The notes beneath the pieces are model-generated. The model did not search any database. It was not told where the DNA came from and saw only the letters and a program-made list of their open reading frames with translations. The position numbers and the translations under genes are program-made. Of a stretch of 64,000 nucleotides of DNA, positions 46,352 to 50,704 are shown in pieces. Source of the stretch: Lachnospiraceae bacterium (GTDB lineage: Bacteria; Bacillota; Clostridia; Lachnospirales; Lachnospiraceae); assembly GCA_024404675.1 (NCBI GenBank), contig JAKSPO010000002.1:1-64000 (forward strand), read 5' to 3'. Position 1 is the stretch's first letter. Every line of letters begins with the position of its first letter.

Positions 46352-46627
46352 TTATGTCAAAAAATGGTGTTGTCGGAAGCGGATTTTTTTGGTAATATAG
46401 AGATAGAAGCAGAGGAAGGATTCGTTCTCTGCCATGTGTACGAACTGCTCATATTCGACTTTTTGACCGGTGTTGCAAAAAAGGTGCCGCGAAAAGTCTA
46501 TTTTGCGTTAAAAAAGTAACATAAAATTGAGAAAAGTACTTGAAAAAAACGGCAGGAAAATGTTACACTAATAGATACCAAAAAAGTTGAAGTGTATTGT
46601 GAACAGAATATAGGGGAAGCTATTTAA

Positions 46628-48640
46628 ATGGGTGAGAGTGTAGCAAGCGTGCTGTTTGCCAGGCGCAGGCCCGGCGGAAAGCTGTTTGCTTTTTTTGAGC
46701 AACATGGCGATGAGGATAATCGCATAAGCGGTGCGCATCTGGCGTGCAAAAGCTTCCGGAAGACGAAGCTTTCGAAGGAGCTTTCCGGAGCGCTTAGAAC
46801 GGTTAAAAAGAAGAAATATTCGCTTAATGAGAATGCGGAACGGCTGTCGAAGGCGCTTATACATGAGCGATTCGGAGATGCGGCCGAGATGGTCCGCAGA
46901 CAATATATACGTAGTGTGGCGGATTTGCATGCACTTCGCTCCTTTGCCTGGACGATCGGAGAGTATCGTAAGCAGACGGGAACGGAGTACGAGAATCTGT
47001 CGGAGAAGGAACTGCAGGGTGCTGCGGAGACTGTAATTGCGGCGGGTTATTTGAATTACCGCGGCGGTTCACATTTTCCGGGACTGTGCAGTCAGCCGGA
47101 CAAGGATGTGTTCTTTCTTCCCGAAGGAATCGACAAGGGAGTGAAGACAGAGGCCGGCACATATGGTTCAACAGCCTCTTTGAATCGTCTTCGGATGGAT
47201 CTGATCCGTTTGAAGCCGGTTGTGGAGAATATAGCAATGGCGCTTCTCGTCGATATGGTTGACGGGGCGTGCCGGGATTGCTTCGCCAGGGTGCTTTCTG
47301 CATGGTGCGTTTTGGCCCTTTCGGCAACGGAACCGTTTTTTATGACGGACGGGCCGAAGAGCTTAAGACTTCCAAAGGTGAGATCCGCGGAAGCGGAGGA
47401 AGTGCAGCAGGTTCCCGAGGCGGAAGGGGATTACCTGATTGCCGAAATTGACGGCGAGATGGTGCGGATTCCCAATCATTTGTCCGCGAAAGAGGATATG
47501 TATAATTTGCTGAGGAATAGCGCGTTGAGCTCAGCAGAATTGGTGGATACAGAATCGACCGAACGAAAGCTTTCCGACTTCGGAGAGATTGACTTTCAAG
47601 TTATTTCAAAAAGATTATTTGAGTTACAGGAGGACGAAATGGTAGCTAACAATGATCCAGGAAGAGAAAGAACAGTAGAGGAGCTGATTGCGGAGATGAT
47701 GGGGACCGCATTGCAGAAGGCTTCCGAGCCGGCTCCCGCACCTGCTCCGACACCTGCTCCGGTAGAGCCCGAGTGGGTTGTTTCCACGAATAATTCAAAC
47801 AGTATCGATTCCGGCTGGGACGCAACTCCCGTTGCACCCGCACAGCAGGCAGCACCTGTTCCGGAACCGGCACCGTTTATTCCCACAATTGAGTATGTAG
47901 CACCCGAGCCGATGCCCTATATTCCGCCGCAGCCCACATATGTTGCTCCGGAACCGATGCCTTACATCCCGCCGCAGCCTGCATACGTTGCTCCGGAACC
48001 GATGCCCTATATTCCGCCGCAGCCTGCATATGTTGCCCCGGAACCGATTGTTGAGCCCGCTCCCGTAATTCCTGAGCCCGTAGTAGTTCCGGAACCGGTA
48101 GTGATTCCGACTCCCGTAGTTACACCTGAGCCGGTAGCAGCTCCCGAGCCCGCACCTGCACCCGAACCGGTTAAGCCTGTCAGCACGATTCCTGATATCA
48201 CGCCTGCCGGCGCACCTACCCCTGCACCGTCTACCTTTGAGACGAATCAGGCTTCTCAGACTGAGGTCGATGAGCATGAGGCAGCTGTAAGAAGACGTAT
48301 GCGTGAGATTCTTGAGCAGAACAAGAAGAAGCAGCAGGAGAAGGACGAGGTCCGCAGACAGATTGAGGAGCGTCGTCTTGAGGTTGCAAGAAAGCAGGAG
48401 CAGAGACGTCAGGAGATTCTTGCTAAGCGTAGAGCAGATTACGATAAGCTTCTTGCTGAGCAGGAAGAGATGAAGAAGATTGTTGAAGAGAATAAGAATG
48501 CAATCATGGGCGACCGTAAGCGTAAGAGAATGGATGCACAGAGAAGAATCGATGAAATCGAGGATATCATCCTGAAAGAGTATCTGGATCTGAAGCGCGG
48601 TACGAATGATTATCATACCGGTCTTACGCAGGAGCTTTAA
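46628..48640 (+). CDS. Large Pro-rich, coiled-coil protein of unknown function
   Basis: A 670-residue protein. Residues 1-250 are a helical, Leu-rich region without a recognised domain. About 260-350 is a mixed region. About 370-535 is low-complexity Pro/Ala/Glu/Val, containing three 15-residue repeats (YVAPEPMPYIPPQPA). About 545-650 is a long basic/acidic coiled coil (RRRMREILEQNKKKQQEKDE, then RRADYDKLLAEQEEMKKIVEE). No signal peptide or membrane helix. It looks like a cytoplasmic scaffold or cell-envelope-associated structural protein. GGGGAAG is upstream. It is followed at 27 bases by a 180-residue protein, then by the RNA and reverse transcriptase. Confidence 0.7.
   Translation: MGESVASVLFARRRPGGKLFAFFEQHGDEDNRISGAHLACKSFRKTKLSKELSGALRTVKKKKYSLNENAERLSKALIHERFGDAAEMVRRQYIRSVADLHALRSFAWTIGEYRKQTGTEYENLSEKELQGAAETVIAAGYLNYRGGSHFPGLCSQPDKDVFFLPEGIDKGVKTEAGTYGSTASLNRLRMDLIRLKPVVENIAMALLVDMVDGACRDCFARVLSAWCVLALSATEPFFMTDGPKSLRLPKVRSAEAEEVQQVPEAEGDYLIAEIDGEMVRIPNHLSAKEDMYNLLRNSALSSAELVDTESTERKLSDFGEIDFQVISKRLFELQEDEMVANNDPGRERTVEELIAEMMGTALQKASEPAPAPAPTPAPVEPEWVVSTNNSNSIDSGWDATPVAPAQQAAPVPEPAPFIPTIEYVAPEPMPYIPPQPTYVAPEPMPYIPPQPAYVAPEPMPYIPPQPAYVAPEPIVEPAPVIPEPVVVPEPVVIPTPVVTPEPVAAPEPAPAPEPVKPVSTIPDITPAGAPTPAPSTFETNQASQTEVDEHEAAVRRRMREILEQNKKKQQEKDEVRRQIEERRLEVARKQEQRRQEILAKRRADYDKLLAEQEEMKKIVEENKNAIMGDRKRKRMDAQRRIDEIEDIILKEYLDLKRGTNDYHTGLTQEL
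47894..48046 (+). repeat. Tandem 45-bp coding repeats
   Basis: Three consecutive 45-base units (47894, 47939, 47984) and a partial fourth encode YVAPEPMPYIPPQP(A/T). The units differ mainly at synonymous third positions, so selection appears to keep the peptide. Confidence 0.9.
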
Positions 48641-48667: not shown

Positions 48668-49210
48668 ATGGGTTTATTTGATAAAGTAATGAACTCGCTT
48701 TTTGATTCAACGAAGAAGGCCCTGGATTCCTTTGCAAACGGAACGAAGCCGGAGGGCGCTACACAGGCAGAAACGCCTGCAGCGAATCCGGTGAATCCCG
48801 CTCCGGCAGCTTCGGTAACTGCTCCGATGAACGCGGCAGATGATGCTGAACGTATTTACAGAGAAGACGGAACCTATGCATTGAATGCTTCCTTTCACAG
48901 AGATGTGGATTATTTCCGTGGCATACTCGCTTCGGGATTTGCCGGCTGTACGATTGAGGAGAACGTATCAATCTCCCGATTTGACGCGACCGCGCATCCG
49001 AAATGCCTACCGGTAACCTTTATGATTACCGAAGGAGACAGAAGCATAGCATTTTTCGTTATTAAAAAGGGACAGAAGAATGCGATGACATATCGCGGTT
49101 CGCTGCAAGCACTCGACGCTGCGGGAATTGCACATACGCACTGCATTACCTGTTACAAGAACGACGCGGCATACGTCGTAGCTCGAATCAGAGCGGCAAT
49201 GAATGCCTGA
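48668..49210 (+). CDS. Uncharacterised cytoplasmic protein
   Basis: A 180-residue protein with AAAAGGAGGAC upstream. The N-terminus is an amphipathic helix (MGLFDKVMNSLFDSTKKALDSF), then a Pro/Ala linker (about 28-55). An alpha/beta domain of about 120 residues follows (DVDYFRGILASGFAGCTIEENV, VTFMITEGDRSIAFFVIKKGQK, VVARIRAAMNA), faintly like a restriction-endonuclease-type or receiver-type fold. I cannot assign it. Directly precedes the structured RNA and reverse transcriptase, and may be part of the same locus. Confidence 0.65.
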   Translation: MGLFDKVMNSLFDSTKKALDSFANGTKPEGATQAETPAANPVNPAPAASVTAPMNAADDAERIYREDGTYALNASFHRDVDYFRGILASGFAGCTIEENVSISRFDATAHPKCLPVTFMITEGDRSIAFFVIKKGQKNAMTYRGSLQALDAAGIAHTHCITCYKNDAAYVVARIRAAMNA

Positions 49211-49239: not shown

Positions 49240-49370
49240 GGATAGAGAAGAACGCATATCGGATGCTCCTGCAGAGGGCGCAGCATAACCTTTGTATGGT
49301 TTTGCAGGAAGCCGGTTATGTATCGCCCGGTATAGCAAAATTGCTATTTTAAAGCACTTCTTCTCTATCC
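49240..49370 (+). ncRNA. Structured, pseudoknot-capable RNA directly upstream of the reverse transcriptase (retron-like position)
   Basis: Perfect 13-bp inverted repeats bound a 131-base element: 49240-49252 pairs with 49358-49370. Inside are a 4-bp hairpin (49254-49257/49263-49266), a strong hairpin of 5 plus 7 bp (49276-49280/49324-49328 and 49284-49290/49314-49320), and a 6-bp hairpin (49332-49337/49342-49347). The loop of the strong hairpin carries TGCAGGA (49303-49309), which pairs perfectly with TCCTGCA (49267-49273), making a pseudoknot. The closing repeat ends 22 bases before the reverse transcriptase start. In retrons, such a1/a2 repeats flank the msr-msd RNA in the same position. 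That this RNA is a template is inference. Confidence 0.65.
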
Positions 49371-49392
49371 CTTTTATTTTTTCGAGGATAAC

Positions 49393-50637
49393 ATGGACTA
49401 CCTGAGGAGTGTCGGAAGTAAGGAGGCGTGGGAGGAGTTCTACGCGTACTGCACTTCCAACGAGCATATCGTAAAAAGCGAATTGAAGGAGCTGCGGCAG
49501 TTTATCGACTGCGGCAGCTTTTTGTCGTGGTATGAGCGAATCGTTAGCGGGGATTTTCCGATAGCCGAGAGAACGGTTCTTAACAAGAAGGGCACTGCGA
49601 AGAAGCGTGTCGTATATATGTTTCCGGGCGAAGCCGGATGGATTCTTAAGTACCTTTCGTTTCGGTTACATGCTTACGATGACTGCTTTGCGGACAATCT
49701 CTATTCCTTTCGGGTGAAACGCGGCGTGAAGCGTGCCGTTTCGGATATTCTGGCGATTCCGGGGCTTCGGAACCGATATGTTTATAAGCTTGATATTCAT
49801 GATTATTTCAACTCTGTATCGGTTGAGGCGATTCTTCCGATGCTTAAGGAGCTTCTTTACGACGAACAGCCAGGGCTATATTCGTTTATCGAGGCCTTTC
49901 TGAGAAATCCGTATGTATATGCGGACGGGGAGCGGATCGAGGAGACAAAGGGCATTATGGCCGGTAATCCATTGTCGGCATTTCTCGCTAATCTGTATCT
50001 CTCGGATATGGATCATTTCTTCGAAGGAGCAGGGATTCCGTACGCCCGGTATTCGGATGATATGATTGTGTTCGCGGAATCCGAGGAGCAGCTTTCTTCT
50101 TATCGGGAGGAGATTCTTCGAAGACTATCCGAAAAGGGGATGACGGTCAATCCGGCGAAGGTTTTTCTTGCGGCTCCCGGGGAGACGTGGGATTTTCTCG
50201 GCATTACGTACCGGGATGGTGCGGTGGACATCGCGAAGGCATCAGTTGAAAAGCTGAAGCATAAGATGAAGCGAAAGGCCAGAGCGCTCTACCGTTGGAA
50301 GGTGAAACGGCAGGCCTCCGATGAGCAGACGATTCGTGCCTACATTCGACATTTTAACCGAAAGCTGTACGACAATCCGGCGAAAGGGGAGCTGACCTGG
50401 TGCAGGTGGTTCTTCCCGGTAATCACAACAACGGACAGCCTTAAGGAGCTTGACACATATATGGTTGCCTGCATTCGTTATCTCAAAACGGGACGGTATT
50501 CGAAGGCCAATTATTCGCTTCGTTACGAAACGATTCGCTCCTATGGCTTTCGGAGCCTTGTGCATGCCTATTACGAAAGTGACCGTTTTGCTGCGGTAGA
50601 TATGCCACTTGGCATAGAAGACATACCCGAAATGTGA
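49393..50637 (+). CDS. Stand-alone reverse transcriptase (RNA-directed DNA polymerase)
   Basis: A 414-residue protein. RT palm motifs are clear: KKRVVYMFPGE (70-80, fingers), motif A YKLDIHDYFNSV with Asp134, motif B GIMAGNPLSAFLANLYLSDMD (187-207), and motif C YSDDMIVFA with the YxDD box at 220-223. A helical thumb-like region follows (AKASVEKLKHKMKRKARALYRWK). There is no endonuclease, maturase or integrase domain, so it is not a typical group II intron or retrotransposon enzyme. I do not see the NAxxH and VTG motifs expected of classical retron RTs. GAGGA lies 5 bases upstream, right after the structured RNA. Confidence 0.9.
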   Translation: MDYLRSVGSKEAWEEFYAYCTSNEHIVKSELKELRQFIDCGSFLSWYERIVSGDFPIAERTVLNKKGTAKKRVVYMFPGEAGWILKYLSFRLHAYDDCFADNLYSFRVKRGVKRAVSDILAIPGLRNRYVYKLDIHDYFNSVSVEAILPMLKELLYDEQPGLYSFIEAFLRNPYVYADGERIEETKGIMAGNPLSAFLANLYLSDMDHFFEGAGIPYARYSDDMIVFAESEEQLSSYREEILRRLSEKGMTVNPAKVFLAAPGETWDFLGITYRDGAVDIAKASVEKLKHKMKRKARALYRWKVKRQASDEQTIRAYIRHFNRKLYDNPAKGELTWCRWFFPVITTTDSLKELDTYMVACIRYLKTGRYSKANYSLRYETIRSYGFRSLVHAYYESDRFAAVDMPLGIEDIPEM

Positions 50638-50675: not shown

Positions 50676-50704
50676 TTGCAAAAGCCCACATTATATGCTA
50701 CAAT
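50676..50704 (+). promoter_or_regulatory. Promoter of the D,D-carboxypeptidase gene
   Basis: TTGCAA, 17 bases, TACAAT. It lies between the reverse transcriptase stop and the next start, marking the end of the RT transcription unit. Confidence 0.65.

What the first reader, a model, noticed from the sequence alone, without database searches (positions are those of the whole stretch)
49240..50637. Reverse transcriptase with a retron-like RNA immediately upstream
A 414-residue stand-alone RT (YSDD motif) begins 22 bases after a 131-base element bounded by perfect 13-bp inverted repeats. This matches the a1-(msr-msd)-a2-RT order of retrons. The RT lacks the NAxxH and VTG signatures of classical retron RTs as far as I can read, and no toxin or effector fusion is present. 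It could be an undescribed retron clade or an RT-plus-RNA defence system of the DRT kind. What I see: repeats, palm motifs, spacing. What I infer: that the RNA is the template.
Basis: partly seen in the sequence, partly recalled or inferred. Interest (0 to 1): 0.9.

Follow-up and report, generated by a model that had tools for sequence, protein, structure and literature searches.

The report
Bacterial reverse transcriptase with structured RNA
A gut bacterium's chromosome carries a reverse transcriptase of a catalogued but apparently unstudied kind (UG26), together with its own folded RNA and a small partner protein; it is not a retron and may copy a short stretch of that RNA into DNA, which can be tested directly.

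Summary
In detail: a perfect 13-bp inverted repeat closes a 131-nt element 22 bases upstream of a 414-aa YSDD reverse transcriptase. It is not a new retron. The RNA core is Rfam RT-5 (RF03026) and the RT is PADLOC RT_UG26; both are catalogued, but I found no functional study in the library I could search. Added here: (1) RNA and RT go together (all 32 RNA-positive genomes among 397 of the family carry the RT). (2) The closing stem, almost wholly outside the Rfam model, covaries (11 of 13 pairs); a 6-bp pseudoknot covaries at all six pairs. (3) In two relatives RNA and RT lie 1.2 and 7.3 kb apart with opposite-strand genes between, so there the RNA is a gene of its own. (4) A small protein (48668-49210; PADLOC RTasCOG2852, probable PD-(D/E)XK-like fold) is a third part, often lost. 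(5) The single-stranded segment between the last hairpin and the closing stem sits where DRT9 and DRT10 RNAs hold their templates; its A-B-A' repeat signal is mixed. (6) The locus is chromosomal, among housekeeping genes, unmatched in phage and plasmid collections. Most likely a DRT9/DRT10-like ncRNA-templated, protein-primed RT; defence is inferred, not shown.

The parts
48668..49210 (+). Small partner protein, 180 aa ('SMALL', PADLOC family RTasCOG2852): N-terminal helix, low-complexity linker, C-terminal probable PD-(D/E)XK-like domain (about 74-180)
   Evidence: homologue in 43 of 50 distinct loci; of 49 homologues in all, 47 end 22-132 nt before the RNA core on the same strand, 1 (L108) lies between RNA and RT, 1 (L118) was not placed by the script; PADLOC RTasCOG2852 in 34 of 45 members at E<=0.1, best 3.3e-63, window itself 0.015; AF2 model and structure matches
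49240..49370 (+). Whole ncRNA as defined here, 131 nt (ends inferred from the closing stem, not from transcripts)
49263..49361 (+). Rfam RF03026 RT-5 match, model 1-104 of 104, 81.1 bits
49240..49252 (+). P1, 5' arm of closing stem (13 bp)
49358..49370 (+). P1, 3' arm of closing stem; followed by a T-rich tail
49254..49266 (+). P2 hairpin GCAU/AUGC
   Evidence: 91.5% of cells paired, 4 of 4 pairs with double changes
49268..49273 (+). Pseudoknot strand 1, CCUGCA
   Evidence: 99.7% of cells paired, 6 of 6 pairs with double changes
49303..49308 (+). Pseudoknot strand 2, UGCAGG, in the loop closed by P3c
49276..49328 (+). P3 arm: P3a 49276-49280/49324-49328, P3b 49283-49290/49314-49321, P3c 49298-49301/49310-49313
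   Evidence: 91.2% (P3a+P3b) and 90.5% (P3c) of cells paired
49332..49347 (+). P4 hairpin
   Evidence: not part of the pair count
49348..49357 (+). Single-stranded segment UUUAAAGCAC between P4 and P1: candidate template (inferred)
   Evidence: position as in DRT9/DRT10 templates; direct-repeat tests, for and against
49393..50637 (+). UG26 reverse transcriptase, 414 aa, YSDD at residues 220-223, C-terminal SLVHAYY at 388-394
   Evidence: PADLOC RT_UG26 E 5.6e-159, 527 bits, next best 112; Pfam RVT_1 only; motif counts

Best explanation
A chromosomal cassette of three parts: small probable PD-(D/E)XK-like protein, RT-5 ncRNA, UG26 RT. Shown by sequence: the cassette, the RNA structure (closing stem P1, P2, pseudoknot, P3, P4) and the linkage of RNA to RT. 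Inferred: the RT binds the RNA as a stable particle; the single-stranded segment between P4 and the 3' strand of P1 (UUUAAAGCAC in the window) lies in the active site as template, with P4 as its 5' boundary; synthesis is primed by a hydroxyl residue of the RT's conserved C-terminal SLV[HN]EYY tail, as in DRT9 and DRT10; and short template-end homology (UU..UU here, up to 6-7 nt in relatives) lets the product slip back and add tandem repeats, in the window perhaps (GTGCTTTAAA)n. The partner protein senses, guards or acts on this DNA or on phage DNA. Anti-phage defence is the likeliest use, by kinship only.
For: RT class: UG26 by a 415-bit margin; all 54 aligned relatives match RT_UG26 and also UG17, UG27, UG4 and Drt9; profile match of the 54 to a UG17 homologue, probability 98.9%, 21% identity over 306 columns. 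RNA-RT linkage: 32 of 397 genomes have the RNA (31 over the cut-off), 37 have the RT, all 32 lie within the 37 (Fisher 3e-42). RNA structure: 88.3% of cells paired against 74.5% in shuffles and 42-49% when slid; 34 of 40 pairs with double changes. Independent RNA gene: L142 and L143 separate RNA and RT; sigma-70-like promoters (9 of 12 or better) in front of the RNA in 16 of 44 against 3.4 expected. Template place: DRT10 A-B-A' at about 107-119 of a 137-nt RNA, just 3' of a stem-loop; DRT9 template U123-U126; here 109-118 of 131, just 3' of P4. Tail: of 54 RTs Y378 in 54, L389 in 53, V390 in 53, position 393 Y in 47, F in 6, W in 1, position 394 Y in 43; DRT9's priming peptide is IMNPQSLNYDYE. 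A-B-A': direct repeat of 4 nt or more abutting the segment in 20 of 44 against 9.5 expected. Partner: all 3 genomes with the partner among 148 of the class carry UG26, and so do all 14 among 31 near relatives.
Against: The A to A' homology is no better within a sequence than between sequences (3.34 against 3.28, 1600 of 5000 shuffles as high), so the repeat signal may come only from conserved U-rich ends; direct repeats also peak elsewhere in these RNAs (histogram). The window itself has only a 2-nt repeat. The A' segment overlaps paired bases of P1. The RT model was unusable (pLDDT 48.5), so the tail was not placed at the active site; the comparison with DRT9's tail is by eye. The best PDB sequence matches are group II intron RTs (6ar1, 2.6e-32) ahead of any DRT entry, and the top NCBIfam model is group II RT (115 bits, below its cut-off of 300), so the UG kinship rests on PADLOC profiles. 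Neighbours look like housekeeping genes more than a defence island; no match in 50,697 phage or 72,556 plasmid records at 1e-20; 17 of 21 congeners carry it, which is high for a defence system. The partner is missing in 14 of the 61 tree rows that I labelled as having the RNA near by.
Confidence: 0.5

Rival explanations
1. The RT-RNA particle is a domesticated chromosomal enzyme with a housekeeping role (for example DNA repair or end processing), the RNA serving as scaffold or template; not anti-phage.
For: Present in own genome + 17 of 21 congeners; flanks shared within each of two genus subclades (670-aa family upstream in 7 of 7; family F5 downstream in 8 of 11, tree); housekeeping neighbours; no phage or plasmid match; [quoted passage not shown]
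Against: UG kin with known function (DRT2, DRT3, DRT9, DRT10) are anti-phage; patchy in the family (37 of 397) and class (16 of 391); one neighbour among 126 matches another RT-associated family, RTasDUF1848, and single ones match AbiD, DpdF and BrxH models.
Confidence: 0.25
2. DRT2-like rolling-circle copying of most of the RNA into a repeated DNA that carries an endless reading frame.
For: The RT also matches the Drt2 profile (65 bits); antisense frame -1 is open through the tested segment in 23 of 44 RNAs.
Against: The tripled segment stays open in some frame in only 13 of 44 (one choice of segment, no shuffle control for the tripled case); segment lengths fall in all three classes mod 3 (19, 15, 10).
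Confidence: 0.08
3. The RNA is a cis leader or attenuator that controls RT expression.
For: It lies directly upstream of the RT in most loci and in the window is followed by a T-rich tail.
Against: In two genomes RNA and RT are 1.2 and 7.3 kb apart with opposite-strand genes between, the RNA still scoring 86.8 and 86.6 bits; pseudoknot and closing stem unlike a simple terminator. Both genomes are drafts and may share one ancestral insertion.
Confidence: 0.07
4. A retron: the repeats are a1/a2, the RNA an msr-msd, the product a branched msDNA.
For: Order inverted repeat - RNA - RT as first read; a VTG string in 10 of 54 RTs.
Against: NAxxH in 0 of 54; retron St85 model 56 bits against a cut-off of 235; best class UG26; no retron RNA family matched at gathering threshold.
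Confidence: 0.04

Closest known systems
UG26 (PADLOC RT_UG26 and RTasCOG2852, both listed under DRT)
   Same: Same RT family and the same partner family by profile.
   Different: The PADLOC models cover proteins only; RNA, closing stem, pseudoknot and template candidate are added here. No functional study found in the held library.
Rfam RF03026 RT-5 RNA (Weinberg et al. 2017 is recalled; paper not held)
   Same: Core 49263-49361, 81.1 bits.
   Different: The model stops inside the closing stem; the structure line that cmscan printed shows no P1 and no pseudoknot. The Rfam entry itself was not read.
DRT10 (UG17), PMC12632851 (sections 6-9 and part of the legends read)
   Same: Related RT; ncRNA of 137 nt against 131 here, a large stem with smaller stem-loops; template just 3' of a stem-loop; small partner gene.
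   Different: DRT10's partner is SLATT and its ncRNA lies upstream of SLATT, with A-B-A' identified in 85-95% of RNAs; here the partner is RTasCOG2852, the order is partner-ncRNA-RT in 47 of 49, and the repeat signal is mixed.
DRT9 (UG28), PMC12483538 (passages read)
   Same: ncRNA-linked RT; conserved C-terminal tyrosines (SLNYDYE against SLV[HN]EYY, by eye); template towards the 3' end of the RNA.
   Different: DRT9 has a universally conserved poly-U template; here the segment begins UUYAA with a variable continuation.

Membership tests
UG/DRT, class UG26 | Best profile match RT_UG26 by a wide margin | tested here: met
   527 against 112 bits; 54 of 54 aligned relatives match RT_UG26
UG/DRT, class UG26 | Associated protein RTasCOG2852 | tested here: met
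   34 of 45 homologues at E<=0.1, best 3.3e-63; the window's own ORF only 0.015
UG/DRT, class UG26 | Anti-phage activity | not testable with these tools
   needs a plaque assay
UG/DRT, class UG26 | Place with UG RTs in a labelled RT tree | not tested
   no labelled reference set at hand; only one UG17 outgroup, on a very long branch
Rfam RT-5 (RF03026) | Score over the gathering threshold | tested here: met
   81.1 against 45.7 bits
ncRNA-templated, protein-primed DRT (DRT9/DRT10 type) | Structured ncRNA genetically linked to the RT | tested here: met
ncRNA-templated, protein-primed DRT (DRT9/DRT10 type) | Template with A-B-A' repeat just 3' of a stem-loop | tested here: inconclusive
   20 of 44 against 9.5 expected, but A does not covary with A'
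ncRNA-templated, protein-primed DRT (DRT9/DRT10 type) | C-terminal priming Tyr/Ser at the active site | tested here: inconclusive
   conserved tail; structure model unusable
DRT10 | UG17 RT with SLATT partner | tested here: not met
   UG17 profile 98 bits against 527 for UG26; partner is RTasCOG2852
Retron | RT with NAxxH and VTG | tested here: not met
   NAxxH in 0 of 54; VTG string in 10 of 54, place not checked
Retron | msr-msd RNA with branched msDNA | not testable with these tools
   no retron RNA family matched; the product needs sequencing
Group II intron | Maturase RT inside an intron RNA | tested here: not met
   no group II RNA at gathering threshold, only RVT_1 in Pfam, TIGR04416 115 bits against a cut-off of 300
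PD-(D/E)XK nuclease (partner protein) | Fold | tested here: inconclusive
PD-(D/E)XK nuclease (partner protein) | Catalytic D and (D/E)xK | tested here: not met
   D in 4 of 45 at column 117, E in 14 of 45 at column 130, K in 0 of 45 at column 132 (columns chosen by eye from the model's strands)

The most novel reading that the evidence does not exclude
UG26 is a further, chromosomally settled branch of telomerase-like bacterial RTs: a pseudoknotted, independently encoded template RNA feeds a tyrosine-primed RT that writes short tandem-repeat DNA, guarded or used by a nuclease-fold partner without a clear active site, possibly for something other than phage defence.
Probability: 0.25. Interest if true: 0.85.

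Novelty: new member of a known kind. Interest (0 to 1): 0.58.

Why it matters
UG26 and RT-5 sit in separate catalogues with, as far as I could search, no function attached. Joining them, completing the RNA (closing stem, pseudoknot, template candidate) and showing that RNA and RT can lie apart turns database names into a system with a specific, cheap prediction: YSDD-dependent DNA repeats of a given sequence. If it holds, repeat-writing RTs extend beyond DRT3, DRT9 and DRT10 to a locus kept by most members of a gut-bacterial genus. If it fails, UG26 becomes a case of an ncRNA-linked RT that does something else.

Tried and rejected
Retron, group II intron, cis leader and DRT2-like endless ORF were each weighed as above. 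RT structure: AlphaFold with 4 sequences gave pLDDT 48.5 and was dropped. A viral scan with the RT alignment brought one distant RT only (31% identity over residues 132-274). The papers of Weinberg 2017 and Mestre 2022 are not held. No reference tree with retron, DGR or Abi RTs was built, as no labelled sequences were at hand; I relied on profiles, PDB matches and one UG17 homologue as outgroup (very long branch). The statement that I found no function for UG26 in print rests on the paper searches within the held library only. A cold-seep virus paper labels some viral RTs UG26 (PMC10504277, passages); my viral, phage and plasmid searches did not recover such a case.

Rows dropped: L069-L071 (same loci as L061-L063) and L133 (same as L106) as duplicates; L093 (partial RT) from the RT lists; L104 (short) from the tree; the RT alignment A2 held 54 of 69 RTs (the divergent L114, L115, L117, L134 left out), the partner alignment A3 45 of 49; the neighbour set A6 held 126 of 137 candidates. 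One search used 50 of the 61 RNAs (the 11 class-level ones are not in it); one of the 61 (L112) lies below the Rfam cut-off. The 61 RNAs were reduced to 50 unique and 44 representatives. In one search the script misplaced P4 in L057, L060, L097 and L125 and found 4 bp in L111; in the other 56 of 61 it placed a stem of 5 bp or more. The structure counted was written by eye from the window, the Rfam line and a sight of the relatives. The A-B-A' measure was defined after looking at the sequences. The group labels are mine: L121 (RNA 1.2 kb away) counts as having the RNA, L123 (7.3 kb away) as not.

Full report
What is there. The inverted repeat, the spacing and the YSDD reverse transcriptase are as described. 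The stretch 49240-49370 folds far better than shuffles (z -5.65), and its core is Rfam RT-5. The RT is PADLOC RT_UG26 at 527 bits with the next model at 112; Pfam sees only RVT_1. Named relatives of the window are labelled Lachnospiraceae (L062, L063) and Lachnoclostridium (L061), so I call the window's family Lachnospiraceae.

RNA and RT belong together. Over 397 genomes of the family the RNA is found in 32 (31 over the cut-off) and a UG26 RT at E<=1e-60 in 37, and every one of the 32 is among the 37 (Fisher 3e-42). Of the five RT genomes without an Rfam hit, two (G359, G390) have sub-threshold RNA upstream of the RT (35 and 33 bits); three (G251, G351, G365) have none and score lower as UG26 (297-382 bits). 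In the class 16 of 391 genomes carry the RT. Beyond G000 and G239, already in the family sample, 11 loci show the RNA at threshold, one has it 7.3 kb away (G537), one sub-threshold (G742, 36 bits), and one divergent RT has only a 19.6-bit hit elsewhere in its genome (G682).

Structure. In a MAFFT alignment of 50 RNAs, not fitted to any structure, the structure that I wrote by eye is paired in 88.3% of cells, against 74.5% in column shuffles and 42-49% when partners are slid. A pseudoknot CCUGCA/UGCAGG pairs in 99.7% of cells with double changes at 6 of 6 pairs. The structure line printed by cmscan shows neither.

The RNA is its own gene. In two genomes of one genus RNA and RT have been separated: in L143 by 1.2 kb with a glycosyl hydrolase 43 gene on the other strand, in L142 by 7.3 kb of genes, most of them on the other strand, with the RNA at 86.8 and 86.6 bits. 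Both have the GH43 gene beside the RNA, so this may be one ancestral event, and assembly errors cannot be excluded. Across 44 representatives a sigma-70-like promoter of 9 of 12 or better lies just upstream of the RNA in 16, against 3.4 in shuffles: in 8 of 10 where the partner gene is missing and 8 of 33 where it is present, one unknown left out (Fisher 0.0025). In the window no such promoter lies before the RNA (score 7); promoter-like sites lie at 46540-46569, 47589-47618 and 50676-50704 (3 found with 4.4 expected, so weak). Co-transcription with the partner is the likelier case here.

Mechanism. DRT9 and DRT10 RTs copy a short stretch of their RNA and are primed by C-terminal Tyr or Ser. 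Here the matching place is 49348-49357, just 3' of hairpin P4. Its start UUYAA is nearly fixed and its continuation variable. Direct repeats of 4 nt or more abutting it occur in 20 of 44 RNAs, against 9.5 expected from the rest of the same RNAs (p 4e-4), 1 of 300 local shuffles reaching it; at 5 nt or more 8 of 44 against 2.2 (p 0.0015), 6 of 300 shuffles. An example is GGAUUU-AA-GGAUUU in L032. Against this, a sequence's A matches its own A' no better than another's (also not within either of two subsets, 531 and 1337 of 5000), repeats also peak elsewhere in the RNAs, the measure was defined after looking, and the window has only UU. I take repeat synthesis as plausible, not shown. The RT tail SLV[HN]EYY is strongly conserved and resembles DRT9's priming peptide by eye; the RT model was too poor to place it.

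Kinship caveat. By sequence the best solved structures are group II intron RTs (6ar1, 2.6e-32), with Drt2, Drt3a and telomerase entries lower, and NCBIfam's top model is group II RT, below its cut-off. The UG assignment rests on PADLOC's UG26 profile, which is far ahead of every other.

Defence or not. The kinship says defence; the setting does not add to it. Among 126 neighbour proteins 27 PADLOC families matched at 1e-20 (25 shown: mad3 in 4 proteins, the rest in 1 each, among them RTasDUF1848, AbiD, DpdF and BrxH), while the Pfam families shown (25 of 116) are mainly transporters, signalling, sporulation, translation and metabolism; I had no control set for these counts. There is no match in phage or plasmid collections. 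In the genus 17 of 21 congeners carry it; of the four without, two are only 80-86% complete. A housekeeping role is the main rival.

Verdict. Ordinary as a discovery of parts, since both RT and RNA are catalogued; valuable as a complete, testable and, as far as I could search, uncharacterised system.

Noticed in passing
L114:2656-6468: A divergent UG26-like RT stands behind radical SAM domains in one 1271-aa frame (Radical_SAM_N2 2.6e-29, Radical_SAM 3.7e-8, RVT_1 at 940-1145); no RT-5 RNA found in that genome.
   Followed up: partly
window 46628-48640: 670-aa protein with a proline-rich repeat stretch and no Pfam hit ends 27 nt before the partner gene; its family lies there in all seven loci of the window's subclade and in no other locus of the set.
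   Followed up: partly
L108:4958-6901: The one locus with the order RNA - partner - RT, as in DRT10; its RT match holds one in-frame stop (G292).
   Followed up: no
G234:C12, G292:C31, G390:C269: UG26 RT matches with one in-frame stop each, possibly decaying copies.
   Followed up: no
L097:5495-6376 and L101:3933-5048: Longer partner proteins (293 and 371 aa) carrying the same domain with extra N-terminal sequence.
   Followed up: no
44 representative RNAs: Antisense frame -1 of the RNA segment is open in 23 of 44, above the other five frames (5-13); unexplained, may follow from conserved blocks.
   Followed up: no
L136:915-2844: A UG17 (DRT10-type) RT in another family of the phylum with a 193-aa ORF directly upstream, the place where DRT10 keeps SLATT; the ORF was not scanned.
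   Followed up: no
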